Assembly: GCF_003574835.2 (NCBI RefSeq)
Contig: NZ_CP063196.1
Coordinates: 1,674,001 to 1,738,000, forward strand
Source: Thermobifida halotolerans
Lineage (GTDB): Bacteria > Actinomycetota > Actinomycetes > Streptosporangiales > Streptosporangiaceae
Direction of reading: 5' to 3'
DNA: 64,000 bases
Numbering within the stretch: the first letter of the stretch is position 1; each line of letters opens with the position of its first letter. Below are positions 14,399-58,773 of this stretch, piece after piece. The notes beneath the pieces were generated by a model. That model was not told the DNA's origin. It ran no database searches and was given only the letters and a program-made list of their open reading frames with translations. A program made the position numbers and the translations under genes.

Positions 14399-19855
<5,457 letters not shown>

Positions 19856-19999
19856 CCAACCGAGCCCTTCTGTAGACCAACGGGGTACGCGCCGCGGCAC
19901 AGCGGCCCCGGCAGTGTTCACCCTTCCGTATACCGGACGGCAGTGCCATGTCGCGGACAGCCCACGCTGGGCGTCTCCATTTGTGGAAAACGATCAAAA

Positions 20000-26695: not shown

Positions 26696-27595
26696 GTGAA
26701 CCATCCGATCCGTCCCGACCCGGTCTTCGACCCCGAGTTGTCCGAGGAGGAGCGCGCGCTGCTGCGCGCCCACCTCAACCCCCCCGACCGCCGCAGGCCC
26801 CCGGAGGCGGAGGCGTCGAGGCGCCTGCCGCTGCCGCGGTGGGCGGTCGAGCACCCCGTGGCCGCGGCCGTGGTCGCCGTGCTCGCCGTCGTCGTGGGTC
26901 TGCGCCTGCTGGCCAGGGTGGCTCCGTTCGCGGCGCCACTGCTGCTGCTGACCGTGGTGGTGGCGGCCGCGGTGGTCCTGCTGGTCGCCGCGTTCAGAAC
27001 CCCCGGGGGCGGTGAGTCGCCCGCGCGGGCCGCCGCGCGCCGTTACCGCGACCGCTACGTCACCGCCGAGGAGTTGGACGCCGAGGCGGGTCGCCTGCTG
27101 GTGCGCGCCCAGCGGGCCGCGGCCGCGGTCGAGGACGCCCGGGTCGTGCGCGACGATGTCGTCGACGCCGCCCTCAACGCGTCGGTGCTGCCGCACCAGC
27201 TGTGGGAGACGGCCACCGCCCTGCGCCGCATCAGCGACCTGCGTTCCCGTCCCACCCCCGCCGAGGCCGACGCCGAGGCCGCCCCCCTCCTGGCCGGGCG
27301 CCGACGTGCCCTGGAGGAGGCGCAGCGGTCGGTGGCCGTCCGCGTGGCCGCTCTGGAGGACTACGCCGAACGGGTGACCGAGGCCGACCGTGCGCACCAG
27401 CGCGCCCAGCAGTTGCGGGGCCTCCTCGCCGAGCAGGAGGAGCTGCGGGACCTGCTGGCCGCCACCGCCGCCGACGAGCACGCGGTGCGTCACCTGGCCG
27501 ACCTCACCGAGCGGGTCGAGGCCGCCGAGGCAGGGCTGCGGCGGGCCGCCGACGAGGCGGTCGAGGCCGCGCGGCGCCTGGGCGGCGCGGACTGA
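26696..27595 (+). CDS. Membrane-anchored coiled-coil protein
   Basis: 299 aa. Residues ~53-100 contain two adjacent hydrophobic helices (HPVAAAVVAVLAVVVGLRLL, APLLLLTVVVAAAVVLLVAA); residues ~110-299 are Ala/Glu/Arg-rich with heptad-like spacing (AEELDAEAGRLLVRAQRAAA, LRGLLAEQEELRDLLAATAA), a long coiled coil. GTG 26696 follows CAGGGAGA. No enzymatic motif. A structural or envelope role is a guess. Confidence 0.65.
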   Translation: MNHPIRPDPVFDPELSEEERALLRAHLNPPDRRRPPEAEASRRLPLPRWAVEHPVAAAVVAVLAVVVGLRLLARVAPFAAPLLLLTVVVAAAVVLLVAAFRTPGGGESPARAAARRYRDRYVTAEELDAEAGRLLVRAQRAAAAVEDARVVRDDVVDAALNASVLPHQLWETATALRRISDLRSRPTPAEADAEAAPLLAGRRRALEEAQRSVAVRVAALEDYAERVTEADRAHQRAQQLRGLLAEQEELRDLLAATAADEHAVRHLADLTERVEAAEAGLRRAADEAVEAARRLGGAD

Positions 27596-27606
27596 GCGGT
27601 CCGCGG

Positions 27607-28095
27607 TCAGGACCACCGCACGGGGCGGCCGTGTTCCAGGTAGTGGACGCCGCCGCTGGTGGGGGACACGCACGCGCCGATCCGGCGGGCCTGCGGTTCG
27701 GGCAGGTAGTCGACCAGGCGGGCGGGGGCGACCAGGCGGGCGGCGCTGAGCTCCTCGGGGGGCAGGCGCACCCGCGCGAACTGGTCGGGGGCGAGCGTTC
27801 CGGCGAACACGAACACGGTGGCGGGCCGCCGGTCCGGGCTGGCGTCGGCGGGCAGCCAGTCCACGCACACCAGCCCGCTCAGGGAGGGGGTGAACCCGAG
27901 CTCCTCGGCGCACTCGCGCAGGCAGGCCCGCAGCGGCGACTCGCCCATCTCGATGACTCCGCCGGGCAGTCCCCAGCCGGACCGGTAGGTGGGCTTGACC
28001 AGCAGGACGCGTCCGGTGTCGTCGCGCAGCAGCGCGCTGGCCGCGCCCCGGGTGCGCGGCAGGCTGTCGAAGAACTCCAACTCGCTGTCGGACAT
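27607..28095 (-). CDS. NUDIX hydrolase
   Basis: 162 aa. Complete Nudix box: GGVIEMGESPLRACLRECAEELGF region, i.e. G-x5-E-x7-R-E-x2-E-E-x-G. The fold start SALLRDDTGRVLLVKPTYR and the G-W-G-L-P-G-G entry are typical of MutT-like pyrophosphohydrolases of nucleoside diphosphate derivatives. ATG 28095 is preferred over an in-frame GTG six codons upstream. Converges with the coiled-coil gene with 11 bp between stops. Confidence 0.85.
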   Translation of the reverse strand: MSDSELEFFDSLPRTRGAASALLRDDTGRVLLVKPTYRSGWGLPGGVIEMGESPLRACLRECAEELGFTPSLSGLVCVDWLPADASPDRRPATVFVFAGTLAPDQFARVRLPPEELSAARLVAPARLVDYLPEPQARRIGACVSPTSGGVHYLEHGRPVRWS

Positions 28096-28168
28096 GGCTT
28101 CGACCCTAGCCACCGACGCGGCGTCGGCGCAGGGGCCCGTACGGTCCCGAACACCCCTTTTTTTCCGG

Positions 28169-28423
28169 TCAGGTCCGGCCGTGCTGTTGGTCGTAGCGCC
28201 GTTTGAAGTCGGCGCGCAGCCGCGCGGACTCGGCCGGGTCGTCGCGGTGCAGGGCGTCGTACTCCTCGACCGGGATGGCGTGGCGGGCGTAGTGGTCGTA
28301 GTCGAGGTCGCCGGGCCGCAGCAGGGCCGCGCCGCATCCCAGGGCGGGCTCGTCGGGGTCGGCGTAGCTGACGGGGACGCACAGGCTTCCGTCCGGGTAA
28401 CGGACCGCGAGGACGCGATTCAC
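28169..28423 (-). CDS. Small hypothetical protein coupled to metallopeptidase-like gene
   Basis: 84 aa (RVLAVRYPDGSLCVPVSYAD, PVEEYDALHRDDPAESARLR). Its GTG start overlaps the stop of the upstream gene by 3 bases, so the two are co-translated. Soluble and charged, with two cysteines (LCVP, LGCG). No family recognised. Confidence 0.6.
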   Translation of the reverse strand: MNRVLAVRYPDGSLCVPVSYADPDEPALGCGAALLRPGDLDYDHYARHAIPVEEYDALHRDDPAESARLRADFKRRYDQQHGRT

Positions 28424-29097
28424 GCCATCACCCCATAGTTGCGGTGGAAGTACTCCACAACAGCGTAGGCGAGGTCCACCTGCCCCTCCAGCATGTTCAC
28501 CAGGACCTGCTCTTTTCGGGCCAGTGCGATGGCGAAGCACTCGGCCCACCATTCGTGTCGGCGGTGCCAGTACTCCTCGACCAGGTACGGCAGGCAGGCC
28601 TCGTGCAGCTCCCGCCACTGGCGGGTCTCCGACATCATGCGGTCGGCGAGGTCGAGGACGTGGCCGATCTCGTGGTAGACCAGCGACACCGAGGCGTGCG
28701 GGTTGCTGCCCAGCACCAGGAAACCGAAGCGGTAGATCCCGGCGAGGCGGTCGAAGGTCGGCGCGTGCGGGTCGTCGGGGTCGGTGGAGACCCCGCGCAG
28801 GTGGTTGAAGCAGTTGAGGTCGGCCACCGAGCCCTCGCCGATGTAGATGCCGTTGACCTCGTCGATGACGCGGTCGACGATGGGGAAGGGGAGGCTGGCC
28901 AGCGCGTCGATGTGGTCGAGGACACGGGACGAGGGGATGGTTCCGGCGGGCCAGCGGCGGTGCAGCACCGTCTCCAGCCGCCCCAGGTGCCGTCGCCCGT
29001 CATCGGGGAGCGGGAGCACTCCCTGCGGGTGCGGTCCGCATTCCAGGCGTTCGTTCACGAGTAAGCAACATAGATCCTCGCGGGGGCGCAGGCGCAC
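28420..29097 (-). CDS. Putative zinc metallopeptidase-like protein
   Basis: Up to 225 aa. The zinc motif YHEIGHVLD (HExxH) is followed about 45 residues later by HEWWAECFAIALA, whose glutamate could be the third ligand, as in gluzincins and toxin-like ATLF proteases. NGIYIGEGSVADLNCFNHLR resembles the substrate-side strand in ATLF-like domains. No signal peptide, so cytosolic or exported with a partner. Start uncertain: the frame opens at 29097, but GTG 29058 (NERLECGPHP) is also plausible. Forms an operon with the 84-aa gene. Confidence 0.6.
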   Translation of the reverse strand: MRLRPREDLCCLLVNERLECGPHPQGVLPLPDDGRRHLGRLETVLHRRWPAGTIPSSRVLDHIDALASLPFPIVDRVIDEVNGIYIGEGSVADLNCFNHLRGVSTDPDDPHAPTFDRLAGIYRFGFLVLGSNPHASVSLVYHEIGHVLDLADRMMSETRQWRELHEACLPYLVEEYWHRRHEWWAECFAIALARKEQVLVNMLEGQVDLAYAVVEYFHRNYGVMA

Positions 29098-29133
29098 ACC
29101 GGGCGCGGCGCGGCCGGGATGTGCGGGGCGCCG

Positions 29134-29925
29134 TCAGGGGGCCGAAAGCAGGGCGATCCGCTCGGGGAGTCGGGTGTCGGTGGCGGGCCGGACCTCGGTG
29201 CGGTTCCGGTCGAGGAGTTCCAGTTCACGCAGCCGCTGCCGGGCCTGGGCGCTCGTCCACGGAGGCCGGGCCACCGCCAGGCGGGGCAGGTGGTCGGGCG
29301 CGTGGACGAGCGCGTTGTGGACGGACTGCTCGCAGTCGGGGCCGACCAGCAGCACCAGGGACGCGGCGTCGCGCAGCGTCTCGCCCCACAGCGCCTCGCA
29401 GCCGACGCGGCGGGGCGTGCCCATCAGGCACAGCGGGGCGGGCCAGTCGGGGCGGCGCACCGCCCGGCTGACGGACAGCTCCGTGGTGGCGGTCGTGCCC
29501 GGCTCCGCCGGGTAGTCCATGCACAGCAGGGCGGGGGTGTCTCCGGTGAACTCGGTGACGAAGGCGTGCTCCTCCTCCGGGGTGGCCGCGACGACCACCA
29601 CCTTGCGGGGGCCGGTGCGGTCGTGGTGGGGGTCGATGGTGACCACCCCGGCCTCGACGAGGTCCCGGCAGACGGTGGCGACCACGCCGAGGGGCAGACC
29701 GGTCTCGGCGGCGAGTTCGGCCAGCACCGCGGGGCGCTGGTACAGCCTGGCCACGATCGCCGGGGTGGCGGGGCTGGGGCACAGGCTGTGGGCGCGGGTG
29801 ACCGCGTGGCCGGCGGCCCTGCGGGCCTCGGTCAGGCGCAGTGTCTCGGTGTGCCGCAGGGGCCGCTGCGACCACCGGGACGGCAGTCCCAGCAGGGGAC
29901 GGATTCGGCTGAGGGGGACAGTCAC
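29134..29925 (-). CDS. DUF742 winged-helix protein with degenerate GTPase-like tail
   Basis: 263 aa. Residues ~15-110 match DUF742 (CvnC-type) winged-helix proteins of actinobacterial conservons: HSLCPSPATPAIVARLYQRP, LAAETGLPLGVVATVCRDLV, EAGVVTIDPH. The remaining ~150 residues (TTATTELSVSRAVRRPDW, ALWGETLRDAASLVLLVGPD, VHNALVHAPDHLPRLAVARP) resemble the partner GTPase CvnD but lack any GxxGxGKT P-loop. No CvnA sensor or CvnB roadblock gene is adjacent. Divergent from the monooxygenase at 30096 with 170 bp between starts, so it may control that cluster (inference). Confidence 0.65.
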   Translation of the reverse strand: MTVPLSRIRPLLGLPSRWSQRPLRHTETLRLTEARRAAGHAVTRAHSLCPSPATPAIVARLYQRPAVLAELAAETGLPLGVVATVCRDLVEAGVVTIDPHHDRTGPRKVVVVAATPEEEHAFVTEFTGDTPALLCMDYPAEPGTTATTELSVSRAVRRPDWPAPLCLMGTPRRVGCEALWGETLRDAASLVLLVGPDCEQSVHNALVHAPDHLPRLAVARPPWTSAQARQRLRELELLDRNRTEVRPATDTRLPERIALLSAP

Positions 29926-30095
29926 GGGGATTCCTCGAGGAGAGGGTGTGGGCTGTCCATAGTGTCGCCGGATCCTCGACAGCGATCAAACCGGTGTGTC
30001 AGGATTTGCCACAGGGTGCGGTGTTGTAGGGGATCTGAGATCATCGGCGTGGTAGCCATAAGTTTCTTTCCCGCAGTGTTTTGGAGACCACGCAC
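29926..30095. promoter_or_regulatory. Divergent promoter region, DUF742 gene / monooxygenase
   Basis: 170 bp, locally AT-rich (GATCTGAGATCATCG and CATAAGTTTCTTTCCCGC). No clear dyad identified. Confidence 0.4.
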
Positions 30096-31391
30096 ATGTC
30101 CCCCTCGTCGTCCCCCCGGGTGTTGATCGTCGGAGCCGGTCAGTCCGGCCTGTACCTGGGTCACCGACTGCTCGATCACGGTTTCGGGGTCGAGTTGGCC
30201 ACCAATCAGACCTCCCTGGAGATCCGCGACGGCCGGGCGTCGGTCACCCAGTTCTCCTGGCCGTCCACCCGGGCGCTGGAGGAGCAGGCCGGCCTGGACC
30301 TGTGGAAGGAGCAGGCCCCCCGGTTCGAACGGGTGAACATGTCGCTGCGTCCTCCCACGGGTGACTGGGTGGAGTACTCGGGCCGGTTCGACGCCTCCCC
30401 CGTGGCGCAGCGGGTCGGCGGTTACGCGGTCAGCGTGGACCGCAGGGTGAAGATGGCCGACTGGTTGGAGAACCTGGAGGACAAGGGGGCCAAGGTCCAC
30501 ATCCAGACGACCACCCCGGAAGACCTGCGGTACTACGTGCGCATGTACGACCTGGTGGTCATCGCGGTCGGCGCGGGCGGGCTGGGAGCCCTGTTCGACG
30601 TCGAGCCGGACCGTTCCTCCGGTGCGCACGAGCGCGTGATGACCCAGGCCTTCCTGGACGGTGTCACGTGGCAGGGCGAGCAGCAGTTCGACGTCTACTC
30701 CACCAACGGCGGCGAGGTGTACTTCACGCCGGTGCTCACCGCCGAGGGCGAGGCCACCAGCGTGACGATGCTCAGTACTCCGGGGGGAGCCCTGGACGCC
30801 GAGGGCATGGCCGGGCGCAACCCGGCGCCGCTGCTGGCGGGCATGCAGACCCTGCTGGGCAAGGTCATGCCCGACGTGGGTGAGCGTATCGCCCACCTCG
30901 GCGTCGACGACCTGGTGGGCGGGCCCAAGGGCATCGCCTACTCGCGGTTCACCCCGGCGGTGCGCAAGCCGGTCGCCCTCGTCGACGGCACTCCCGTGCT
31001 GGGCATGGCCGACGTGGTGGTCACCTCCGACCCGGTGGCGGGGCAGGGGTGGGCGAACTCCACCTTCTGCGCCCAGTCCTACGCCGACGCGATCCTCGCC
31101 CACAGCTCCCGCGGCGGGCGGTTCGACGAGGAGTTCATGACCGCGACGTTCGAGGACTTCTACCAGGACCGCGGCCGTCACGCCGCGGTGTTCTCGGACA
31201 TGGTCCACGGGTTCTGGCGGGGGGAGATCCCCGAGCACTTCGGCGAGCTGGTGGAGGCGGCCCTGCGGTACCAGCAGGTCGCCGACCGCTGGATCGGCGG
31301 GTTCGACGACCCGGCCGACTACGAGCGGTGGATGTTCGACCCTGAGGCGGCGCGCGCCTACATCGCTGAGGTGGCGGCCAAGACGGGCTGA
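30096..31391 (+). CDS. Styrene/indole monooxygenase-type flavoprotein
   Basis: 431-aa FAD-dependent oxygenase component. The Rossmann motif VLIVGAGQSGLYLGHRLL has the GAGQSG wording of the StyA family; TQFSWPSTRALEEQAGLDLW and DVVVTSDPVAGQGWANSTFC (FAD-binding, about residue 310) are also StyA-like. Such enzymes epoxidise or hydroxylate alkenes and indoles using FADH2 from a separate reductase; no StyB-like reductase is encoded nearby. ATG 30096 follows TTGGAGACC. It is followed by a strong terminator, then the methyltransferase and PKS genes on the same strand. Confidence 0.8.
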   Translation: MSPSSSPRVLIVGAGQSGLYLGHRLLDHGFGVELATNQTSLEIRDGRASVTQFSWPSTRALEEQAGLDLWKEQAPRFERVNMSLRPPTGDWVEYSGRFDASPVAQRVGGYAVSVDRRVKMADWLENLEDKGAKVHIQTTTPEDLRYYVRMYDLVVIAVGAGGLGALFDVEPDRSSGAHERVMTQAFLDGVTWQGEQQFDVYSTNGGEVYFTPVLTAEGEATSVTMLSTPGGALDAEGMAGRNPAPLLAGMQTLLGKVMPDVGERIAHLGVDDLVGGPKGIAYSRFTPAVRKPVALVDGTPVLGMADVVVTSDPVAGQGWANSTFCAQSYADAILAHSSRGGRFDEEFMTATFEDFYQDRGRHAAVFSDMVHGFWRGEIPEHFGELVEAALRYQQVADRWIGGFDDPADYERWMFDPEAARAYIAEVAAKTG

Positions 31392-31399
31392 GGCCGAGT

Positions 31400-31440
31400 C
31401 GTGGCGGGGCCGCCCCACGTCGTGGGGCGGCCCCGCCACG
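31400..31440 (+). terminator. Strong 19-bp terminator after monooxygenase
   Basis: CGTGGCGGGGCCGCCCCAC / GTGGGGCGGCCCCGCCACG, a perfect stem with 3-nt loop, starting 8 bp after the stop codon. Confidence 0.85.
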
Positions 31441-31441
31441 T

Positions 31442-31762
31442 GTTCCCCCTGTCATGGACCGACGGTGAACAAAATCCCACCAAAGGGAACTTTCCCACCA
31501 AACTGTTTAAGTGGATAAAATTGGGAAACATGAGCCAGGGGGTATCGGATGTGGCTTCTGTAGGCTCTGCGTCCGATACGCCCGCGGTGTTTCCCCCGTT
31601 TTCACAGAGAGGCGCGTATTGCCTGGTTGCCGCTGGTTGATCCTTCCGTGACATAGGTGTCTCCTGCTTCTCGGCCGCCATTTCCCCGGATGACGCGCCC
31701 CCGCTTTTCTCCCCCGCCCCCTCCGATCCCCAGTTACGCCAGCTAGAAATTGAGGTTGCGTC
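31442..31762 (+). promoter_or_regulatory. AT-rich control region of methyltransferase-PKS genes
   Basis: 320 bp clearly richer in A/T than its surroundings. It has a direct repeat TCCCACCAAA at 31475-31484 and 31493-31502 (18-bp period), a TTTAAGTGGATAAAATTGGG stretch, and an inverted repeat GTATCGGA (31542-31549) / TCCGATAC (31572-31579). A 36-codon ORF lies inside (31530-31640). Confidence 0.55.
31530..31640 (+). CDS. Possible 36-aa small ORF in control region
   Basis: ATG 31530 to TGA 31640: MSQGVSDVASVGSASDTPAV followed by FPPFSQRGAYCLVAAG. ATTGGGAAAC precedes the ATG, a weak ribosome binding site. It shares only its first three residues with the methyltransferase start. Could be a leader peptide, a small product or chance. 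Confidence 0.25.
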   Translation: MSQGVSDVASVGSASDTPAVFPPFSQRGAYCLVAAG

Positions 31763-32437
31763 GTGTCCCAAATCTCCTCCAACGAGGCGAACGAGGGGCT
31801 CTACAGCCCCACCGTGCTGAAGATGGTCTACACGCCGGTGGTGATCTGGTTCAGCCACACCCTGGCCTGGAAACTGCCCAACCCGGTCGTGCACCGCAAC
31901 CACCGCGAACACGTGGGCCGGACCCACCTGACCGTGGGACCGGGCAACGGCTACTTCCTGGCCAAACTCCCCAAGAACACCCCGCTGCGCACCCTGCACC
32001 TGCTCGACCTCAACCGCGCCTGCCTGGACGTCACCGCACAACGGGTGGGCGACCGCTTCGACGTGCACACCATCGAACAGGACGCCCTGCAACGCTGGCC
32101 GGTGGAGGAGGCCGGCCTCGACTCGGTGGACTGCCACATGATGCTGCACACCGTGCGCGGAAAGAACCTGCTGGACAAGGAGGCTCTGATCGCCGAGGCC
32201 GCGCGCGCCCTCAAACCCGGTGGCCGGTTCTTCGGCGCCACGGTCCTGGCCAAGGGCGAGGGGGTACGGGTCAACGGGATCGCCCGCAGACTCCTGGACG
32301 TCTACAACAGCAAGCAGAACACCTTCTGCAACCTCGGCGACAGCTCCGAGGACCTGCGTGCCATCTTGGACAAGCACTTCTCCGACGTGCAGTTCCAGGT
32401 GCACGGCTGCACCGGGGTGTGGGTGGCGACCAAGTAG
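31763..32437 (+). CDS. SAM-dependent methyltransferase, membrane-associated type
   Basis: 224 aa, class I methyltransferase. Motif I is LTVGPGNGYFLAKLP (~residue 57) and motif II LHLLDLNRACL; DSVDCHMMLHTVRGK and EAARALKPGGRFFGATVL are motifs post-I and III. The N-terminus VLKMVYTPVVIWFSHTLAWK is hydrophobic, typical of a subgroup found beside polyketide and lipid genes. GTG 31763 is preceded by GAGG. 130 bp upstream of the PKS, probably one transcript despite an intervening hairpin; it may O- or C-methylate the PKS product (inference). Confidence 0.75.
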   Translation: MSQISSNEANEGLYSPTVLKMVYTPVVIWFSHTLAWKLPNPVVHRNHREHVGRTHLTVGPGNGYFLAKLPKNTPLRTLHLLDLNRACLDVTAQRVGDRFDVHTIEQDALQRWPVEEAGLDSVDCHMMLHTVRGKNLLDKEALIAEAARALKPGGRFFGATVLAKGEGVRVNGIARRLLDVYNSKQNTFCNLGDSSEDLRAILDKHFSDVQFQVHGCTGVWVATK

Positions 32438-32453
32438 CCGCCGCCGTCCTCGC

Positions 32454-32487
32454 GCGGGGAGGGAGGCCGACGACGGTCCCTCCCCGC
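32454..32487 (+). terminator. Intercistronic hairpin between methyltransferase and PKS
   Basis: GCGGGGAGGGA / TCCCTCCCCGC, an 11-bp stem with a 12-nt loop. May attenuate read-through into the PKS or protect mRNA ends. Confidence 0.5.
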
Positions 32488-32567
32488 CCCAGGGGAGCCC
32501 CGACCGCGTTGCCCGCCAGCCACCCTCATCCGCGTTTCCGCCACCGATCACGTGACGAGGTTCTGCT

Positions 32568-35495
32568 GTGTCCGAAAAACGTCCCCGCCGTCCCCTCGAA
32601 GCCCTGGCCGCGATCACCGGAATCGGCTGCCGTCTGCCCGGAGGAGTCCACGACCCCGCCGCACTGTGGGACGCCCTGACCGAAGGCGCACTCCTGCCCC
32701 GACCCATCCCACCGCAGCGGTGGGAGCGGATGGCCGCCCTGCTCCACCCCGACCAGCGGCCCGACGAGCCGTGGATCGCCGGCGTGATCGACGACATCGA
32801 CGCCTTCGACCACTCCTACTTCGGCATTCCCGCCGGAGAGGCCGCACAGATGGACCCCCAGCAGCGCATGGTCATGGAGGTCGTCGTCGAGGCCCTGGCG
32901 GACGCGGGCCTGTCCCCGGCCGCACTGGCCGGATCGACGCGGGTGGGCGTGTGGGTCGGGTCCGCCTCCTTCGACCAGGCCGCCCTGAACTTCGCCGCGG
33001 GGCGCAGGGTCGACATGCACACCGTGTCGGGGACATCGCCGTCGATCCTGGCCAACCGCGTCTCCTACACCCTGGACCTGCGCGGCCCCTCCCTGGCGGT
33101 CGACACCGCCTGCTCGGCGTCGGGCACCGCGCTGCACCTGGCCCGCCAGTCGGTGGAGTCGGCAGAGGTCGACACCGCCATCGTCATCGGCGCCAACATC
33201 CTGCTCAACCCCGGCCCCACCGCCGCCTTCCACGACGCCGGGGTACTCGCCCCCGACGGGGTGTGCCGCCCCTTCGACGAGCACGGCGAGGGCTACGTGC
33301 GCGCCGAGGGGGTCGTGGCGCTGGTGCTGCGCCGCACCGAAGAGGCCCAGCGCCACCACGACCGCGTCTACGCGGTACTGCGCGGCTCGGTCGCCAACTC
33401 CGACGGCCGCTCCCCGGGCCTGTACGCGCCCAACCGCGACGCCCACACCGCGCTTCTGACCGACGCCTATGCCAGCGCCGGAATGGACCCGTCCCACGTG
33501 GACTACGTGGTCTGCCACGGCACCGGCACCAAGGCCGGGGACTCCTCCGAGGGCCGCGCCCTGGCCCGCGTCCTCGCCGCGGGACGGGACGAACCCCTGA
33601 CCATCGGCTCGATCAAGTCCACCCTCGGACACACCGAGGGAGCCTCCGGACTGCTGGGGGTGGCGGCGGCCGCCCTGGCCCTGCACCACGCCACCGTCCC
33701 GCCGACCGCCGCCCACGAGACGATCCGCCCTTCCCTGGCGCGGCTGCCGCTGCGTGTGCCCACCCGGCCGGAGCCCTGGCCCCAGACCTCTCGGCCGCGC
33801 ACCGCCGGAGTCAGTGCCTTCGGGTTCGGCGGCTCCAACGTCCACATCGTCCTGGAACAGGCGCCCGCCCCCGAAGGCGAGTCCGGGGAGCAGGAAGTTG
33901 CCGGGCATCGGGTCATTCCCGTCAGTGCCCCCAGCGAGGTGCGGCTGCGCGGCACCGCCGCGGCCTGGGCTCCGGTGGTGGCCGACGCTGATCTGGGCGC
34001 GACGGCGTCGACCGCGCAGCACCGGCGCGCCCACGAGAAGGTGCGGGCCGCCGTGGTCGTCTCCTCTGCCGGGCAGGCCGCCGAGGCGCTGTCCGCGCTG
34101 GCTGACGGGCACGCCCATCCGGCTCTGGTCGGCCCGCACACCGCACCCGAGAAGCCCGGGCGGCTGGTGTGGATGTTCGCCGGGCACGGCTCCCAGCACG
34201 CGGACATGGCCGCCGCCTGCTATGCGGTCCTGCCGGTGTTCCGCGAGGCGCTGGAGGAGGCCCGTGCCGCGCTGGCCGCCCACCTGGGCCGGCGGCCGTG
34301 GCGGCCGGGCGAGCCGATCACCGGGTTCGAGACCGCCCAGCACGCCATCTGGCTCACCCAGACCGCCCAGACCGCGACCTGGCGACACTGGGGCTACACT
34401 CCGGACGCGGTGATCGGCCACTCCCTGGGCGAGGTCGCCGCCGCCCACGCCGCCGGAGCGCTCACGCTGGACGACGCCGCCCGCGTGGTCGCCGCCCGCT
34501 CCGCCCTGCTCGCCGAGACCGAACCGCTGGGCGGCCTGCTGGTCACCGACCTCGACCCGCAGCGGGCCGAGGAGGCCATCGCCGCCCACGGCCACGCCGA
34601 CACCCTGGTGGTGGCCGCGCGCAACGCTCCTGACGCCACCGTCGTCAGCGGCCCCACCCGGCCCCTGGAAGAACTCCGCGAGGCCCTGGACGCCCAGGGG
34701 GTCTTCGCCCGTCGGGTGGCCCACGACGTGCCCGCCCACTCACCCGCCGTGCAACCCCTGCTGCCCCGCCTCACCGAAGCACTGCACGGCCTGGCACCCC
34801 GCGGCGGCACCGCCGTCTTCCACTCCACCGCCGACGCGGCCCCCCTCGACGGGACGCGACTGGACGCCGCCTACTGGGCCCGGCAACTGCGCTCCCCGGT
34901 CCGCCTCACCGACACCCTGCCCCTCGCCGCGGGCACCGACGCGGTTGTGCTGGAACTCGGCGGACGCTCCACCCTGTCCCGCGCCGCCACCACCACCCTG
35001 ACCCACCACCAGATCCCGGTCACCGTCATCGCCGCCGGAACCACCGACCGCGACGACCACGCCGCCCTGCTGGACCAACTCGCCGCCCTCCACACGAACG
35101 GACACACCCCCACCCACTGGCCCGAACCGATACAACCACCGGTGCGGCTACCGGTCTGCTGGGACCACGGCCAGCTGACCGACGCCGAGGCGGCCCCCAC
35201 CCTGGCCGAAGCCCTGGACGCCCCCGACACCGACTCCGCCCTGATCGCCGAGGCCCTCGTCCACCTGCTCGCCGACACCCTGGGCACCACACCCCAGGAC
35301 GTCGACCCCGAGACACCACTGGTCGACCTCGGCCTCACCTCGGTCGCGGCGATCGGTCTGCGCGACGCCGTCCGCGACGCCCACCCCGCCCTGCAGTCCT
35401 TCGGCGTGCGCGCCCTGCTCGACCTGGACACCACCCTCGGCCGCCTGGCCGACATCGTCGTCGACCACTGCCGGACCGTGTCCGCGGCCCGCTGA
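32568..35495 (+). CDS. One-module type I polyketide synthase (KS-AT-ACP)
   Basis: 975 aa. KS (1-430): active-site DTACSASG (Cys182), HGTGTKAGD (His317) and STLGHTEG (His355). AT (~525-810): FAGHGSQ, GHSLGE (Ser619), and DVPAHSPAV where malonyl-specific ATs have HAFH and methylmalonyl-specific ones YASH. ACP (~895-975): DLGLTSVAAIGL with the phosphopantetheine serine at 925. There is no KR, DH, ER or TE, so a fully keto short chain or an iterative product released by another protein is expected. GTG 32568, 130 bp after the methyltransferase. Not a known named PKS to me. Confidence 0.85.
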   Translation: MSEKRPRRPLEALAAITGIGCRLPGGVHDPAALWDALTEGALLPRPIPPQRWERMAALLHPDQRPDEPWIAGVIDDIDAFDHSYFGIPAGEAAQMDPQQRMVMEVVVEALADAGLSPAALAGSTRVGVWVGSASFDQAALNFAAGRRVDMHTVSGTSPSILANRVSYTLDLRGPSLAVDTACSASGTALHLARQSVESAEVDTAIVIGANILLNPGPTAAFHDAGVLAPDGVCRPFDEHGEGYVRAEGVVALVLRRTEEAQRHHDRVYAVLRGSVANSDGRSPGLYAPNRDAHTALLTDAYASAGMDPSHVDYVVCHGTGTKAGDSSEGRALARVLAAGRDEPLTIGSIKSTLGHTEGASGLLGVAAAALALHHATVPPTAAHETIRPSLARLPLRVPTRPEPWPQTSRPRTAGVSAFGFGGSNVHIVLEQAPAPEGESGEQEVAGHRVIPVSAPSEVRLRGTAAAWAPVVADADLGATASTAQHRRAHEKVRAAVVVSSAGQAAEALSALADGHAHPALVGPHTAPEKPGRLVWMFAGHGSQHADMAAACYAVLPVFREALEEARAALAAHLGRRPWRPGEPITGFETAQHAIWLTQTAQTATWRHWGYTPDAVIGHSLGEVAAAHAAGALTLDDAARVVAARSALLAETEPLGGLLVTDLDPQRAEEAIAAHGHADTLVVAARNAPDATVVSGPTRPLEELREALDAQGVFARRVAHDVPAHSPAVQPLLPRLTEALHGLAPRGGTAVFHSTADAAPLDGTRLDAAYWARQLRSPVRLTDTLPLAAGTDAVVLELGGRSTLSRAATTTLTHHQIPVTVIAAGTTDRDDHAALLDQLAALHTNGHTPTHWPEPIQPPVRLPVCWDHGQLTDAEAAPTLAEALDAPDTDSALIAEALVHLLADTLGTTPQDVDPETPLVDLGLTSVAAIGLRDAVRDAHPALQSFGVRALLDLDTTLGRLADIVVDHCRTVSAAR

Positions 35496-35500
35496 GGCGC

Positions 35501-35542
35501 CACGGTGCGGCCCCGCGCTCCCCGGGGCGGGGCCGCACCGTG
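35501..35542 (+). terminator. 16-bp terminator after PKS
   Basis: CACGGTGCGGCCCCGC / GCGGGGCCGCACCGTG with a 10-nt loop, 6 bp after the PKS stop. Confidence 0.85.
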
Positions 35543-35640
35543 CTCTCCGCAGCCGTACCGGTCCGCCCCCGGCAACCAGACGGACGCCCGCCCCAAAGGG
35601 GGTGGTCGGACCTCTCCAGGGACTCGTTATTCTTCATCCC

Positions 35641-36336
35641 ATGGCGCCTCGGTTCGGTTCTCCCGCCCCCTCCTGCAAGGGACAGGCCACCCGCGACAGG
35701 ATCCTGGACGCGCTGCACGAACTGCTGGACGCCTCTCCCGCGGCGAGGGTGAGCATGGCCGACGTCGCCGAACGCGCGGGACTGAAGCGCCCCAGCGTCT
35801 ACAACCACTTCAGGACGGTCGACGAGATGTGCCTGGCGTTGATCGACCGCTCCGCCGCGGAGGTGTTCCACCAGGGACACACCGACAACGCCGCCGACCT
35901 GGGCACCTACCTCAGCACCGCGTTCGTGAACGTGTTCTGCCTGTGGGCGCGCCACCGGGTGGTGTTCGTCATGGCGCTGGAGATCTACGCGCGCGACAGG
36001 ACCTTCGCCCGCGCCTGGGACCAGCAGGTCGCCACCCGGTGGATCGACAAAGCCCTGCCCGTCTACGCCGCTGACGTCGAGGCGGGACGGCTGGCCCCGG
36101 TGCCCGACCCGTCGGCGTTCCTCAACCACATCGCCCTGACCACCCAGCACCACTTCCACCGACTCTGGAGAGACGGAGTCCCCACGGCCCGGCGGGCCCG
36201 CACCGAACTGGGCCGGTGCCTCACCGCCGTCTGGAGACTCTTCGCCCTCCCGGGACAACCACCGAAGGTCGACCGTGCGGCGGTCGACGAGGCACTCGCG
36301 CTGGCCTGCCGCCCCACGACGGCACCGACCACCTGA
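35641..36336 (+). CDS. TetR family transcriptional regulator
   Basis: 231 aa. N-terminal helix-turn-helix: ATRDRILDALHELLDASPAA, SMADVAERAGLKRPSVYNHF. The rest is the helical ligand-binding/dimer domain. ATG 35641; an in-frame GTG at 35602 is less likely. Placed between the PKS and the hydrolase, each separated by short gaps. A pathway regulator for the cluster is plausible but unproven. Confidence 0.85.
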   Translation: MAPRFGSPAPSCKGQATRDRILDALHELLDASPAARVSMADVAERAGLKRPSVYNHFRTVDEMCLALIDRSAAEVFHQGHTDNAADLGTYLSTAFVNVFCLWARHRVVFVMALEIYARDRTFARAWDQQVATRWIDKALPVYAADVEAGRLAPVPDPSAFLNHIALTTQHHFHRLWRDGVPTARRARTELGRCLTAVWRLFALPGQPPKVDRAAVDEALALACRPTTAPTT

Positions 36337-36358
36337 GCCGCACCGGAAGGCGGGCGCC

Positions 36359-37108
36359 TCACACGGAGGAGCCCGCACCCTCCTCGCCCCCGGCCGCCGA
36401 CCGACCCGCCACCGCGTCGGCCGCGTCCATCACCAGCCGGGTGAAGATCTCCGGCTGGTCCAGGTTCACCATGTGACCCGCACGCGGCACCACCAGCAGC
36501 CGGCCGTCCACGCACGCGTCCAGAAACAGCCTCTCGTGGATGCGGAAGTGGTCGCGGGCCCCGTTGACCAGCCACACCGTTCCCGGATAGGCCGTCAACA
36601 GCCCCAGCACGTCCAGATCGGTGACCTCCTCGATCACCGCGCGTCCCGCCTCCATCGCCAACCCGCCGTCCAACACCGCCTCGGCGCCGTCCGCGGGCAG
36701 CGTGAGACGGTGGAACCGCTGGTTGACCGACAGACCCCGGTCCGGCAGGCGGTCCATCAGGACCGTGGGAAGCCGGTACATGCTCGCCCACCCGTGCACC
36801 GGCCGCGCCGAACACCCCGCCGCCACCAGCCCCGCCACCCGCTCCGGATAGGCCGCGGCCGCCGCGATCGACACGAACCCGCCCAGGCTCAACCCCACCA
36901 CCAGCGCCGAGGAGCCCACCGAATCCACGGCGTCGCGCACCGTCTCCACCGCACCGCCCAGGGTGAAAACCTCACCCCGCCGCGTGCCGTGACCGGGCAG
37001 GTCCACCGCCACCACGGTGCGTCCCCGCGCGCGCAGCGCCTCCAGTTGCGGACGCCACATGGTCCGCGACGTCCGCAGACCGTGCACCAGGACGATCGGC
37101 ACGCGCAT
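36359..37108 (-). CDS. Alpha/beta hydrolase
   Basis: 249 aa. IVLVHGLRTSRTMWRPQLEA (oxyanion HG), nucleophile VVGLSLGGFVSIAAA, acid in VNGARDHFRIHE and base in PRAGHMVNLDQPE: a complete catalytic triad of the esterase/C-C hydrolase fold. No signal peptide. Convergent to the TetR gene with 22 bp between stops. It could release or hydrolyse the PKS product since the PKS has no thioesterase, but family members have many unrelated substrates. ATG 37108. Confidence 0.8.
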   Translation of the reverse strand: MRVPIVLVHGLRTSRTMWRPQLEALRARGRTVVAVDLPGHGTRRGEVFTLGGAVETVRDAVDSVGSSALVVGLSLGGFVSIAAAAAYPERVAGLVAAGCSARPVHGWASMYRLPTVLMDRLPDRGLSVNQRFHRLTLPADGAEAVLDGGLAMEAGRAVIEEVTDLDVLGLLTAYPGTVWLVNGARDHFRIHERLFLDACVDGRLLVVPRAGHMVNLDQPEIFTRLVMDAADAVAGRSAAGGEEGAGSSV

Positions 37109-37174
37109 CAACGCCTCCCCACCCCGAAACCGCCACCGGCCCCATTCTCCCCGACGCCACCACCGAAAAACGGA

Positions 37175-37969
37175 CTAATCGGTGTAGACCACGGTGACCG
37201 GCGCGTGATCGGACCACCGCCGGTCGTGGGAGAGGGCCCGCTCCACACACGCGCGCTCCGCCCGCGCCGCCAACGCGGGCGTGGACACCTGGTAGTCGAT
37301 ACGCCACCCCGCGTCGTTGTCGAACGCCCGACCCCGGTAGGACCACCACGAGTAGGGACCGTCCTGGTCCGGCAGCAGCGACCGCACCACGTCCACGTAC
37401 CCGGCCTCGTCGAACACCCGCGACAGCCACTCCCGCTCCTCGGGCAGGAACCCCGAGTTCCTGCGGTTGGTCCGCCAGTTCTTCAGGTCGGCCTCCCGGT
37501 GTGCGATGTTCCAGTCGCCGCACACCACCAGGTCCCGGCCCCCGGCCTCCACCTCGGCGCGCCGCCGCACCAGGTAGGGCAGGAACGCCGCCATGAAGCG
37601 CTCCTTCTCCTCCTGCAGCGGCGTGTTGACCTGGCCGGAGGGCAGGTACAGGCTCGCCACGCTCACCGGCCCGAAGTCGGCCTCGACGTAGCGGCCCGAG
37701 GCGTCGAACTCCGCGCAGTCGAACCCCACCCGCACCGCGTCGGGGGCCGTGCGGGAGTACACCGCCACGCCCGCGCGCCCCTTGGCGTTGGACGGGGCCA
37801 GCACCACGTGCCACCCCTCGGGTTCGGCGACCTCCGCCGGAAGCTGCGCGAGCTCCGCGCGCGTCTCCTGCAGGCACACCACGTCCGCCTTGGTGGCCGC
37901 AAGCCACTCCACGAACCCCTTGCGGGCCGCCGCGCGCAGCCCGTTGACATTGACCGTCGTAATGATCAC
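37175..37969 (-). CDS. xth: Exodeoxyribonuclease III
   Basis: 264-aa AP endonuclease/3'-5' exonuclease of base excision repair. Signature parts: VNVNGLRAAARKGFVEWL, CLQETRAEL (metal Glu), ASLYLPSG, VCGDWNIAHREADLKNWRTN (catalytic Asp/Asn) and SDHAPVTVVY at the end (catalytic Asp-His). Length is standard. GTG 37969 gives VIITTVNVNG as in related proteins; an in-frame GTG four codons upstream is possible. Confidence 0.9.
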   Translation of the reverse strand: MIITTVNVNGLRAAARKGFVEWLAATKADVVCLQETRAELAQLPAEVAEPEGWHVVLAPSNAKGRAGVAVYSRTAPDAVRVGFDCAEFDASGRYVEADFGPVSVASLYLPSGQVNTPLQEEKERFMAAFLPYLVRRRAEVEAGGRDLVVCGDWNIAHREADLKNWRTNRRNSGFLPEEREWLSRVFDEAGYVDVVRSLLPDQDGPYSWWSYRGRAFDNDAGWRIDYQVSTPALAARAERACVERALSHDRRWSDHAPVTVVYTD

Positions 37970-38120
37970 GTAAAAGTCCACTCACTCGCTGGTCGATCGA
38001 TCCCGCAAACCGGGGAGCGGCGGTACACCGAGCACCTCGGCCGCACCGCGGTTCCCGCACACCCACACCCGCCCGGTTGCTCCGACGCGGCCCCGTAGCG
38101 GCGCTGGATCCGACGGAGCA

Positions 38121-39480: not shown

Positions 39481-40509
39481 ATGAGCGTCGCCCCCGGCAC
39501 CACCCCCCAGCCCACCGAGCCCCCGCGCATGCGCGCCGCCGACGCCGTCGACGAGTACCTGACGGTCCGGCGGGCGGCCAAGCCCTCCCCGCACACCATC
39601 GCCGCCTACCGGCGCGACCTGACCGCGGTCCTGGACTGCGCCGCCCGCGTCGACCGGCGTCCCGTCTCCGCGCTCACCCTCGACGACCTCACCGCCGTCC
39701 TGCTGCGCCACGCCTTCGCCGCGTTCGCCGCCGACCGCGCCGCCTCCAGCGTGCTGCGCGCCTGGTCCACCTGGAACGGGTTCTTCGCGTTCCTGGTCAC
39801 CGAGAACCTGGTCGACGGCAACCCCATGCCCGCCGTGCCCCGGCCCCGCCCACCGGCCCGCCAACCCAAACCCCTCATGGGCGAGGACACCCCCGAACGC
39901 CTGCTCACCGCGCTGGCCCGGGGATGTCGCAGGGCCCGCGACCCCTGGCCCGAACGCGACCTCGCCGTGCTGGCGCTGGCCCTGCTCACCGGACTGCGCT
40001 CCGCCGAGATGCTCGCGCTGCGCCTGGACTCCCTCAGCGGACGGCCGGGAGAGCGGCGCCTACGCGTGGTCGGCAAGGGCGGGCGCACCCGATCCCTGCC
40101 GGTGGAGGCCCCGCTGGAAGCGCTCATCGACGCCTACCTCGGCACCCGACGGGTCCGTTTCGGCGTCCGCCTCACCGGCGACGCCCCGCTGCTGGTCGAC
40201 AACCGCGGCCGGGCACTGCGCCGCGGCGGCCTGCAGTACCTGGTCCGCCAGTGCTACCGGCACGCCGGGGTCTACGACCGCGTCTCCCGCGGCACCCTCG
40301 TGCACGCCCTGCGCCACACCTTCGCCACCCGCCTGGCCGAGGACGGCGCGTCGGTCACCGAGATCATGCACCTGCTCGGCCACACCTCCGTGACCTCCTC
40401 GCAGGCCTACATCGACGTCACCGCCCGCTCCCAGCGCGAGGCCGCCCGCGCCAACCGCACCTACGACGTGCTGCGCCGCCTGACCGGCGGCGACACCCCC
40501 GTGCCCTGA
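39481..40509 (+). CDS. XerC/D-like tyrosine recombinase
   Basis: 342 aa. SAM-like N-terminal core-binding domain (AADAVDEYLTVRRAAKPSPH, TIAAYRRDLTAVLD), then the catalytic domain with Arg173 (TGLRSAE), VVGKGGRTRSLP (beta-hairpin lysine), His275-x-x-Arg278 (HALRHTFAT), LLGHTSVTSS and the nucleophile Tyr310 (QAYIDV). All catalytic residues present, so probably active. Lies directly after the IS607 remnant; it could serve an integrated element or an integron-like role. No flanking att repeats identified. Confidence 0.85.
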   Translation: MSVAPGTTPQPTEPPRMRAADAVDEYLTVRRAAKPSPHTIAAYRRDLTAVLDCAARVDRRPVSALTLDDLTAVLLRHAFAAFAADRAASSVLRAWSTWNGFFAFLVTENLVDGNPMPAVPRPRPPARQPKPLMGEDTPERLLTALARGCRRARDPWPERDLAVLALALLTGLRSAEMLALRLDSLSGRPGERRLRVVGKGGRTRSLPVEAPLEALIDAYLGTRRVRFGVRLTGDAPLLVDNRGRALRRGGLQYLVRQCYRHAGVYDRVSRGTLVHALRHTFATRLAEDGASVTEIMHLLGHTSVTSSQAYIDVTARSQREAARANRTYDVLRRLTGGDTPVP

Positions 40510-57662: not shown

Positions 57663-58697
57663 TCACAGTCCAACGTGGCGGATGGGGTTGTCATTCCACG
57701 CGTCGGCGGGGCGGATGTAGGTGTCGACCACGGGTGAGCGCAGCGACCAGCGGCCCTGGCGGGCGATGTGGGCGCGGGGCACGCGGGCGGCCGCGGCGGC
57801 GGTGGCCGCCCCGGCGCGCAGGGAGTGGGCGGTGACGGGGGCGTCGATTCCGGCGCGCTGGGCGAGGGTCTTGACGACGTGGTTGATACCCGCGCCGCTC
57901 ATGCGCCCGGAGCCGCGGACCGTGGCGCCGGGGGTTCCGGCGGGGCGGCCGTGGCGGTCGACGGCGCGCAGCAGCGGGCCGGTGGTGATTCCGGTCTCAG
58001 CGAGCGCGGCGATCCAGGCGAGGGTGGTGCGCACCGGGCAGGTCCGCGCCAGCGAGCCGTAGGGGACGGCGACACCGGCCCCGACGGAGTCGCGGTCGGT
58101 CTTGGAGGTGCGCACGCGCACCTCCAGCCCTTCGGCGACCTCGCGGACGTCGTCGATGTCGAGGGCGGCCAGTTCGCTGCGGCGGGCCATCATCGCGAAG
58201 CCGAGCAGGCACAGGGTGCGGTCGCGCAGCCCGACCAGGTCATCGCCGGTGGCGTCGACCATGGCGCGCAACTGGTCGACGGTGAGCGCGGGGGCGCGGC
58301 GCGGGGTGTGTCCGGCCTGGGCGCGTTCCCGGCGGTAGGAGCGCAGGACCATGCGGGCGGGTTTGGTGTCCAGCGGCAGGCCGACGGCGGTGTGGTGGGA
58401 CTGGATGGTGCCCAGGGCACGGTCGACGGTGGCGGGCGCGGGGGGCGGGACGGTGCGGGTGAGGGCGTCGACGTAGGTGGCGAGGGTGGCGGCGGAGGCG
58501 GGCAGGGCGCTGCGGTCGTGGGCGTCGCACCAGGTGCGGAAGGCGGTCCAGTCACGGCTGTAGGCGGTGCGGGTGTTGGCGGCCCAACTGTCGGCGATGC
58601 GCGCGGCCGCGGCCTCGCTCAGTTCGTTGTCGACGGCGGGCACGGTGTCGCGGCCGGCGGCGGGGACGAGCGGCCCGTGGGGGTGGGGGGTGGTCAT
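57663..58697 (-). CDS. Tyrosine recombinase/integrase
   Basis: 344 aa. Core-binding domain (SWAANTRTAYSRDWTAFRTW), catalytic arginine in MARRSELAAL, HSLRAGAATAAAAARV (H-x-L-R box), RQGRWSLRSPVVDTYIRPAD with the tyrosine nucleophile. Belongs to an actinomycete integrase subgroup common on plasmids and islands. ATG 58697. It lies right beside the rox/transporter chimera and the debris region, so it may have taken part in those rearrangements (inference). Confidence 0.8.
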   Translation of the reverse strand: MTTPHPHGPLVPAAGRDTVPAVDNELSEAAAARIADSWAANTRTAYSRDWTAFRTWCDAHDRSALPASAATLATYVDALTRTVPPPAPATVDRALGTIQSHHTAVGLPLDTKPARMVLRSYRRERAQAGHTPRRAPALTVDQLRAMVDATGDDLVGLRDRTLCLLGFAMMARRSELAALDIDDVREVAEGLEVRVRTSKTDRDSVGAGVAVPYGSLARTCPVRTTLAWIAALAETGITTGPLLRAVDRHGRPAGTPGATVRGSGRMSGAGINHVVKTLAQRAGIDAPVTAHSLRAGAATAAAAARVPRAHIARQGRWSLRSPVVDTYIRPADAWNDNPIRHVGL

Positions 58698-58773
58698 CGA
58701 ACGCCTTGTCCTTCCTCGCGGTGCCGGTGCGGCTCCTCCAACCGGGCTATTAAGGCACAGGTCGGGCACACGA

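What the first reader, a model, noticed from the sequence alone, without database searches (positions are those of the whole stretch)
29134..37108. Compact, apparently unnamed polyketide cluster: DUF742 regulator, StyA-type oxygenase, methyltransferase, KS-AT-ACP, TetR, hydrolase
A one-module PKS without reduction domains or thioesterase next to a styrene/indole monooxygenase and a membrane-type methyltransferase matches no named pathway I know. Expected product: a small keto-polyketide, epoxidised or hydroxylated and methylated.
Basis: partly seen in the sequence, partly recalled or inferred. Interest (0 to 1): 0.72.

Follow-up and report, generated by a model that had tools for sequence, protein, structure and literature searches.

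The report
Pyrone-type polyketide cassette with fused regulator
Four neighbouring genes in a soil bacterium look like a compact, shuffling kit for making a small methylated pyrone-like compound, controlled by an unusual regulator built from two parts of a known bacterial signalling system, one of which has lost its GTP-binding site.

Summary
TetR and hydrolase do not travel with it. The set is conserved in at least five named genera: of 34 MT loci examined, 32 have SMO and PKS, 29 in the same order and strand. The genome (genus inferred: Thermobifida) holds three copies whose AT domains are homogenised (89-94% identical to the window copy) while the oxygenases stay at 42%. Most likely product: a methylated triketide pyrone released without a thioesterase, as reported for nocapyrones (ncpA-D); ncp sequences could not be compared. 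The 'DUF742 regulator' is really a fusion of conservon proteins CvnC and CvnD whose GTPase half has no P-loop; full-length fusions were found in 6 of 297 genomes searched, each beside such a cassette. A 12-nt element between regulator and SMO occurs once per genome in four genomes, always there (a fifth has it there plus two sites in called genes): a candidate operator. Verdict: real, a new variant of a known kind; the regulator is the interesting part.

The parts
29134..29925 (-). Regulator: fusion of a CvnC-type (DUF742) helix-turn-helix domain (about residues 53-101 matched) and a CvnD-type Ras-like GTPase domain without a P-loop (about residues 105-263)
   Evidence: Pfam DUF742 27.0 bits; hhalign of 6 fused proteins to a CvnD alignment 97.9%, E 5e-13, 162 columns, and to CvnC 95.4%, E 2e-8, 48 columns; unrelated control 0.1%; AF2 pLDDT 87.4, pTM 0.85; of the 50 Foldseek rows shown nearly all are named small GTPases; strong full-length matches in 6 of 297 genomes
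30034..30045 (+). Candidate operator TCTGAGATCATC (consensus TCTGARATCATC)
   Evidence: Conserved in 5 divergent regulator-SMO spacers; exactly one site in each of G000, G086, G111, G054 and three in G042, one of them in this spacer; none in G043 and G045; longest k-mer shared by three divergent spacers is this 12-mer, 9 at most in 2000 shuffles
30081..31391 (+). SMO: styrene/indole monooxygenase-type flavoprotein (GAGQSG at residue 18); an ATG 15 nt downstream is an alternative start
   Evidence: Pfam Smoa_sbd; NCBIfam StyA model 128.7 bits, below its 550 cut-off; PDB 9lrq E 2e-55, 7z4x E 5e-48, 3ihm (Styrene monooxygenase A) E 1e-19; motif
31400..31440 (+). Perfect inverted repeat (20-nt arms, 1-nt loop) 8 nt after the SMO stop, possible terminator or transcript boundary
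   Evidence: a 95% 20-nt inverted repeat also follows SMO in T. cellulosilytica L081; the terminator scan, which needs a T run, did not list it
31763..32437 (+). MT: SAM-dependent methyltransferase (GPGNG motif)
   Evidence: Pfam; alignment of 20 relatives; AF2 pLDDT 94.7; Foldseek SAM methyltransferases
32568..35495 (+). PKS: single KS-AT-ACP module, no reductive domain and no thioesterase found
   Evidence: Pfam; KS Cys (31 of 31), AT Ser (30 of 30) and ACP Ser (30 of 30) kept in the aligned relatives
33918..35117 (+). AT domain and the linker before it, homogenised among the three copies in this genome
   Evidence: 81-99% nucleotide identity to copies 2 and 3 in every 150-nt window here, 60-79% in the windows before it, 59-82% after it; protein 89/94% for AT vs 67/65% for KS

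Best explanation
A four-gene cassette for a small methylated pyrone-type polyketide. The KS-AT-ACP PKS takes an acyl starter and adds two extender units iteratively without reduction; the 3,5-diketo chain leaves by self-lactonisation to a 4-hydroxy-2-pyrone, needing no thioesterase (inferred). The MT methylates a ring oxygen, giving an alpha- or gamma-pyrone methyl ether (inferred). The SMO, fed reduced FAD by one of the genome's unlinked flavin reductases, oxygenates the ring or side chain (inferred; weakest step). The divergent regulator, a conservon CvnC DNA-binding-type domain fused to a GTPase-like domain without a P-loop, binds TCTGARATCATC between itself and SMO and controls the cassette (inferred). 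Shown by sequence: the four-gene unit, the fusion, the missing P-loop, the conserved element, the recombination of MT-PKS against regulator-SMO, and the homogenised AT.
For: Unit: of the window genes between 20 and 44 kb only these four recur in the loci of T. cellulosilytica, G086, Actinorugispora and N. ansamitocini (loci of 15-19 kb). 32 of 34 MT loci examined have SMO and PKS, 29 in order SMO-MT-PKS on one strand. No TE or reductive domain. Literature: the last piericidin module (KS-AT-ACP-TE) with its TE inactivated makes alpha-pyrone in vitro (PMC9112059 passages); nocapyrones are said to come from an iterative type I PKS and two methylmalonyl units (PMC6117678 passage), from a locus labelled ncpA-D (PMC4110758 whole text), whose methyltransferase performed the predicted reaction on the native pyrone in vitro (PMC8155685 passage). 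Regulator. Element. Recombination. Six flavin-reductase genes in the genome, none near.
Against: No product, expression or binding data. Homologues of single parts occur without the others: 12 of 14 loci taken from weaker SMO hits (35-41% identity) show no PKS hit; MT homologues at about 35% sit without a PKS on plasmid pEA29; two of the 34 MT loci (L051, L054) show neither SMO nor PKS. The AT signature VPAH is neither HAFH nor YASH (signatures recalled), so the extender is uncertain. In 4 of the 8 other PKSs scanned (L046, L052, L056, L058) Pfam found no ACP at E 1e-3. Why an epoxidase-type enzyme serves a PKS that makes no alkenes is unexplained.
Confidence: 0.6

Rival explanations
1. It is simply an orthologue of the nocapyrone cluster ncpA-D, so the biosynthetic part is already known.
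For: Four gene labels, iterative type I PKS, pyrone methyltransferase, produced by Nocardiopsis.
Against: No ncp sequence was compared; cassettes within the tool's genus g46 (Nocardiopsis by the named contigs) are themselves diverse (MT 31-52% identical to the window's); no source seen says that ncp holds an SMO or a fused regulator.
Confidence: 0.35
2. The product is not a pyrone: the chain is released by other means and MT methylates a carboxylate or a hydroxyl made by SMO (as PieE then PieB2 do in piericidin), giving a linear ester or hydroxylated ketide.
For: Hydroxylation by PieE followed by O-methylation by PieB2 is reported; the MT family is broad.
Against: No releasing enzyme was found conserved with the cassette.
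Confidence: 0.2
3. The 12-nt element is a core promoter (for example of an alternative sigma factor) and not the operator of the fused regulator.
For: It lies 35 nt before the called SMO start; promoters are conserved too; a palindrome (GATCT-G-AGATC) spans it only in the window and Actinorugispora, not in G086, T. cellulosilytica or N. ansamitocini.
Against: Only one site in each of four genomes, which a sigma factor would not usually have; no site in the close relative G043, where no fused regulator was found beside SMO, nor in G045, where the regulator is co-directional.
Confidence: 0.28
4. One reading: the hydrolase releases the chain and TetR regulates.
For: Adjacency; TetR is co-directional, starting 107 nt after the PKS.
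Against: Neither gene accompanies 33 of 33 other MT loci at E 1e-6.
Confidence: 0.06

Closest known systems
Nocapyrone biosynthesis ncpA-D (Nocardiopsis alba CR167; Lin et al. 2013, not held, seen only through citing papers)
   Same: Small locus, iterative type I PKS, dedicated methyltransferase, Nocardiopsis
   Different: SMO and fused CvnC-CvnD regulator not reported in the passages I saw; sequence not compared
Conservons (cvnABCD) of Streptomyces; genes for cytochromes P450 (cvnE) accompany conservons 9-12 (PMC8510531 passages)
   Same: CvnC and CvnD domains; oxygenase gene beside the regulator; in 10 of 58 SMO/MT loci the SMO follows cvnB, cvnC and cvnD
   Different: No cvnB found in the window and no cvnA in the genes flanking the cassette; C and D fused; GTPase P-loop absent; divergent orientation; oxygenase is an SMO, not a P450
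Styrene/indole monooxygenases (StyA and relatives)
   Same: Smoa_sbd domain, GxGxxG, about 430 aa, near full-length PDB matches
   Different: Far below the StyA equivalog cut-off; linked to a PKS, no linked reductase
Piericidin terminal module and PieE/PieB2 tailoring (PMC9112059 passages)
   Same: KS-AT-ACP end module, flavin hydroxylase plus O-methyltransferase
   Different: Stand-alone module here; no TE, cyclase or amidotransferase in the conserved unit

Membership tests
Nocapyrone-type (ncp) cluster | Single iterative type I PKS without reductive domains or TE | tested here: inconclusive
   Here KS-AT-ACP only, iteration inferred; papers call the ncp PKS iterative type I but its domain list was not seen
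Nocapyrone-type (ncp) cluster | Sequence homology to ncpA-D | not testable with these tools
   Lin et al. 2013 not held; N. alba not identified among held genomes
Nocapyrone-type (ncp) cluster | Pyrone product | not testable with these tools
   No metabolite data
Styrene/indole monooxygenase family | StyA substrate-binding domain and FAD-binding GxGxxG | tested here: met
   PF17885 48.9 bits vs 25; GAGQSG; PDB matches over residues 13-430
Styrene/indole monooxygenase family | StyA equivalog (true styrene monooxygenase subunit) | tested here: not met
   128.7 bits vs cut-off 550
Styrene/indole monooxygenase family | Partner flavin reductase | tested here: inconclusive
   Six PF01613 genes in the genome, none linked
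Conservon (cvnABCD) | Four separate genes cvnA-D together | tested here: not met
   No CvnB, CvnC or CvnD tblastn hit in the window at E 1e-6 with single queries (the fusion is seen only with profiles); flanking genes are Nudix, an ATLF-like protein, TetR, hydrolase and exonuclease III. cvnA itself was not searched for
Conservon (cvnABCD) | CvnC (DUF742) and CvnD (Ras-like GTPase) domains present | tested here: met
Conservon (cvnABCD) | CvnD with intact P-loop | tested here: not met
   No [GA]x4GK[ST] in the window protein or in the 5 other fused proteins

The most novel reading that the evidence does not exclude
A conservon, normally a four-protein G-protein-like relay, has collapsed into a one-protein switch: a CvnC DNA-binding domain fused to a dead CvnD GTPase that binds a single dedicated 12-nt operator per genome and senses the cassette's own pyrone or a protein partner instead of GTP. 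It would give a defined candidate target sequence for a DUF742 protein and make the question whether CvnC proteins bind DNA directly testable.
Probability: 0.38. Interest if true: 0.72.

Novelty: new variant of a known kind. Interest (0 to 1): 0.52.

Why it matters
PMC8510531 (passages) says that a DNA-binding role of CvnC proteins remains to be validated. A natural CvnC-CvnD fusion with a near single-copy candidate operator offers a clean test (one protein, one 12-nt site). The cassette family also shows an MT-PKS unit recombining against different regulator-oxygenase units, and AT domains homogenised between copies inside one genome, a natural example of how small polyketide pathways diversify. 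The named loci give strains to screen for pyrones.

Tried and rejected
Six-gene cluster with TetR and hydrolase: rejected on synteny. RNA element: no Rfam match at E 0.1 in 27000-38000. Conserved element in the SMO-MT spacer: little aligned except around the ribosome-binding region and start of MT. N. alba identification by a Nocardiopsis protease (PDB 2oua, species recalled) in the 40 genomes of genus g46: best match 99% in a 7.8-Mb genome, unlike the 5.86 Mb of N. alba TP-A0876, so inconclusive. Multi-module SMO-PKS loci were described only in part. The AT tree dropped G049 (PKS cut by a contig end); the first attempt crashed on it and was repeated without it. The 34 MT loci are 34 of the 70 MT places listed (window included; 32 of the 33 best-scoring and two lower ones), not a random sample. 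Two of them (L051, L054) show neither SMO nor PKS; contig ends lie 1.1-1.3 kb from MT on the SMO side, so an SMO starting within that distance should have shown. Of the 20 named loci, 17 have SMO-MT-PKS in that order (the PKS of L091 is cut); L088 and L097, with 1.3 and 2.2 kb of contig before MT, show neither SMO nor PKS, and L100 shows no SMO and PKS hits only about 4.8 kb away. Many named loci are the same places as unnamed loci, so they are not added to that count.

Literature searches behind 'not found in print': (10 of 10 used). Papers: PMC4110758 whole text; PMC9231205, PMC8706298, PMC8155685, PMC4113818, PMC9319460, PMC9967187, PMC6117678, PMC3617294, PMC8510531, PMC5471306, PMC9112059 passages only; others only as search listings. 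Recalled, from no call: HAFH/YASH AT signatures, the need of StyA-type enzymes for a separate reductase, spontaneous lactonisation of 3,5-diketo thioesters as a general reaction.
Full report
WHAT IS THERE. The window lies at G000:C1:1674001-1738000 of a 5.5-Mb genome. A 'same genus' genome, G111, has a contig of 870,518 bases with the cassette at the place where the scan of named genomes found it in Thermobifida cellulosilytica TB100 NZ_KQ950181.1, also 870,518 bases, so I infer genus Thermobifida. The PKS has KS, AT and ACP and no reductive or releasing domain. In the aligned relatives the KS cysteine (31 of 31), the AT GHSxG serine (30 of 30) and the ACP serine (30 of 30) are kept (the 31st PKS, G049, is cut by a contig end).

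THE UNIT IS FOUR GENES. Comparing the called window genes between 20 and 44 kb with eight related loci, only 29134-29925, 30081-31391, 31763-32437 and 32568-35495 recur as a block; the rest gave one partial Nudix and one partial hydrolase hit. In the tool's family draw of 297 genomes MT was found in 49 at E 1e-15 and SMO in 154 at E 1e-20. I examined 34 of the 70 MT places listed (window included): 32 have SMO and PKS, 29 in the order SMO-MT-PKS on one strand, 2 as MT-PKS-SMO, 1 with the PKS reversed; TetR and the hydrolase appear beside none of the 33 others at E 1e-6. A scan of named genomes gave 20 loci, 17 with SMO-MT-PKS in order, in Thermobifida, Actinorugispora, Nocardiopsis, Marinitenerispora and Murinocardiopsis. 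The parts are not bound to each other everywhere: the 24 loci L021-L044, most of them fetched for top SMO hits, all show a PKS hit, but 12 of 14 loci chosen from weaker SMO hits show none.

THREE COPIES AND SHUFFLING. G000 carries two more cassettes (L021, L022). Against the window copy the SMO is 42/42%, MT 45/47%, KS 67/65%, but AT 89/94%; DNA identity is 81-99% across 33918-35117 and 60-79% in the windows before it. The AT tree joins the three G000 copies (100/99). The KS tree puts copies 2 and 3 in the same nine-row group as the window copy (100/100), whereas the SMO and MT trees place them with other lineages such as Murinocardiopsis. This is best read as exchange of the PKS gene followed by AT-centred gene conversion. 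In Actinorugispora the two cassettes share MT (90%), AT (87%) and KS (79%) but not SMO (41%): regulator-SMO and MT-PKS behave as two exchangeable halves. This fits the hairpin right after SMO and the long SMO-MT spacer of the window-type group (303-594 nt between matches; 231 or less in the other loci where SMO lies before MT).

THE REGULATOR. In 10 of the 58 loci tested (L021-L078) the SMO stands beside cvnB, cvnC and cvnD of a conservon, and copies 2 and 3 keep CvnB- and CvnD-like genes. The window's 263-aa 'DUF742' protein, with 5 relatives, aligns near its N-terminus to CvnC (95.4%, E 2e-8, 48 columns) and over 162 columns of its C-terminal part to CvnD (97.9%, E 5e-13); an unrelated control scores 0.1%. 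AlphaFold2 gives pLDDT 87.4 and pTM 0.85; the best Foldseek rows are Ras/Rab-type GTPases with E 2e-5 and modest TM-scores (0.33-0.39 by query length, mostly about 0.5 by target length). A profile of the fusion matches 143 of 297 genomes at E 1e-6, but strong full-length matches (E 1e-93 or better) are in only 6 (G000, G086, G111, G042, G054, G045); the weaker rows that were listed (the list was cut) match mostly one half, DUF742 or GTPase. All six lie beside a cassette. None of the six has a P-loop; of eight separate CvnD-like proteins beside MT-containing cassettes 4 have it (L022, L028, L045, L050) and 4 do not (L021, L046, L048, L053); beside multi-module PKSs 9 of 10 have it (by pattern).

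THE ELEMENT. In the spacer between regulator and SMO, TCTGARATCATC is conserved in five loci whose spacers otherwise align poorly across genera. In whole genomes it occurs once in G000, G086, G111 and G054, each time here, and three times in G042, one here and two in or at the start of called genes; it is absent from G043 (no fused regulator found beside SMO) and G045 (regulator co-directional). About 0.08 sites per genome are expected from base composition. Three divergent spacers share the exact 12-mer, whereas 2000 shuffles never exceeded 9 (mononucleotide shuffles, a lenient control). A palindrome spans it only in two of the five loci.

HOW IT PROBABLY WORKS. See Best explanation. Pyrone release without TE is supported by the piericidin module result quoted in PMC9112059 and by the nocapyrone reports. 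The AT signature here is VPAH, with xPAH in 27 of 30 relatives, window included (exceptions G010, G021, G045); extender unknown. The SMO step is the least certain.

AGAINST. No experimental data; ncp sequences not available; SMO and MT homologues exist outside such clusters; 4 of 8 other PKSs scanned gave no ACP at E 1e-3; some Nocardiopsis loci have a second PKS reading frame (L046, L049).

Noticed in passing
window 28420-29097 (-): 225-aa protein with a sub-threshold match (25.0 vs 27.4 bits) to Pfam ATLF, a metalloprotease-like domain; no homologue in the eight cassette loci.
   Followed up: no
window 14399-19921 (-): 1840-aa single-chain acyl-CoA carboxylase (biotin carboxylase, biotin carrier, carboxyl transferase); could supply malonyl-type extenders but lies about 9 kb from the regulator gene.
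   Followed up: no
window 39481-40509 (+) and 57663-58769 (-): Two phage-integrase-family genes not far from the cassette.
   Followed up: no
L031, L034-L036, L038-L044, L065, L074: A second kind of locus: SMO beside larger PKSs without MT, in 9 of these 13 after an intact cvnB-cvnC-cvnD set; of the three PKSs scanned, L034 and L042 carry DH, ER and KR, and L035 (cut) carries DH.
   Followed up: partly
L076 5449-8576: Two tandem SMO genes after a CvnD gene with no PKS hit nearby.
   Followed up: no
L111 3489-4148 (pEA29); 692 plasmid records, 582 of them Klebsiella: Homologues of the MT (about 35% in the rows shown) on enterobacterial plasmids; on pEA29 without PKS or SMO neighbours.
   Followed up: partly
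L046, L049: Cassettes in genus g46 (Nocardiopsis) with a second, more divergent PKS frame downstream.
   Followed up: no
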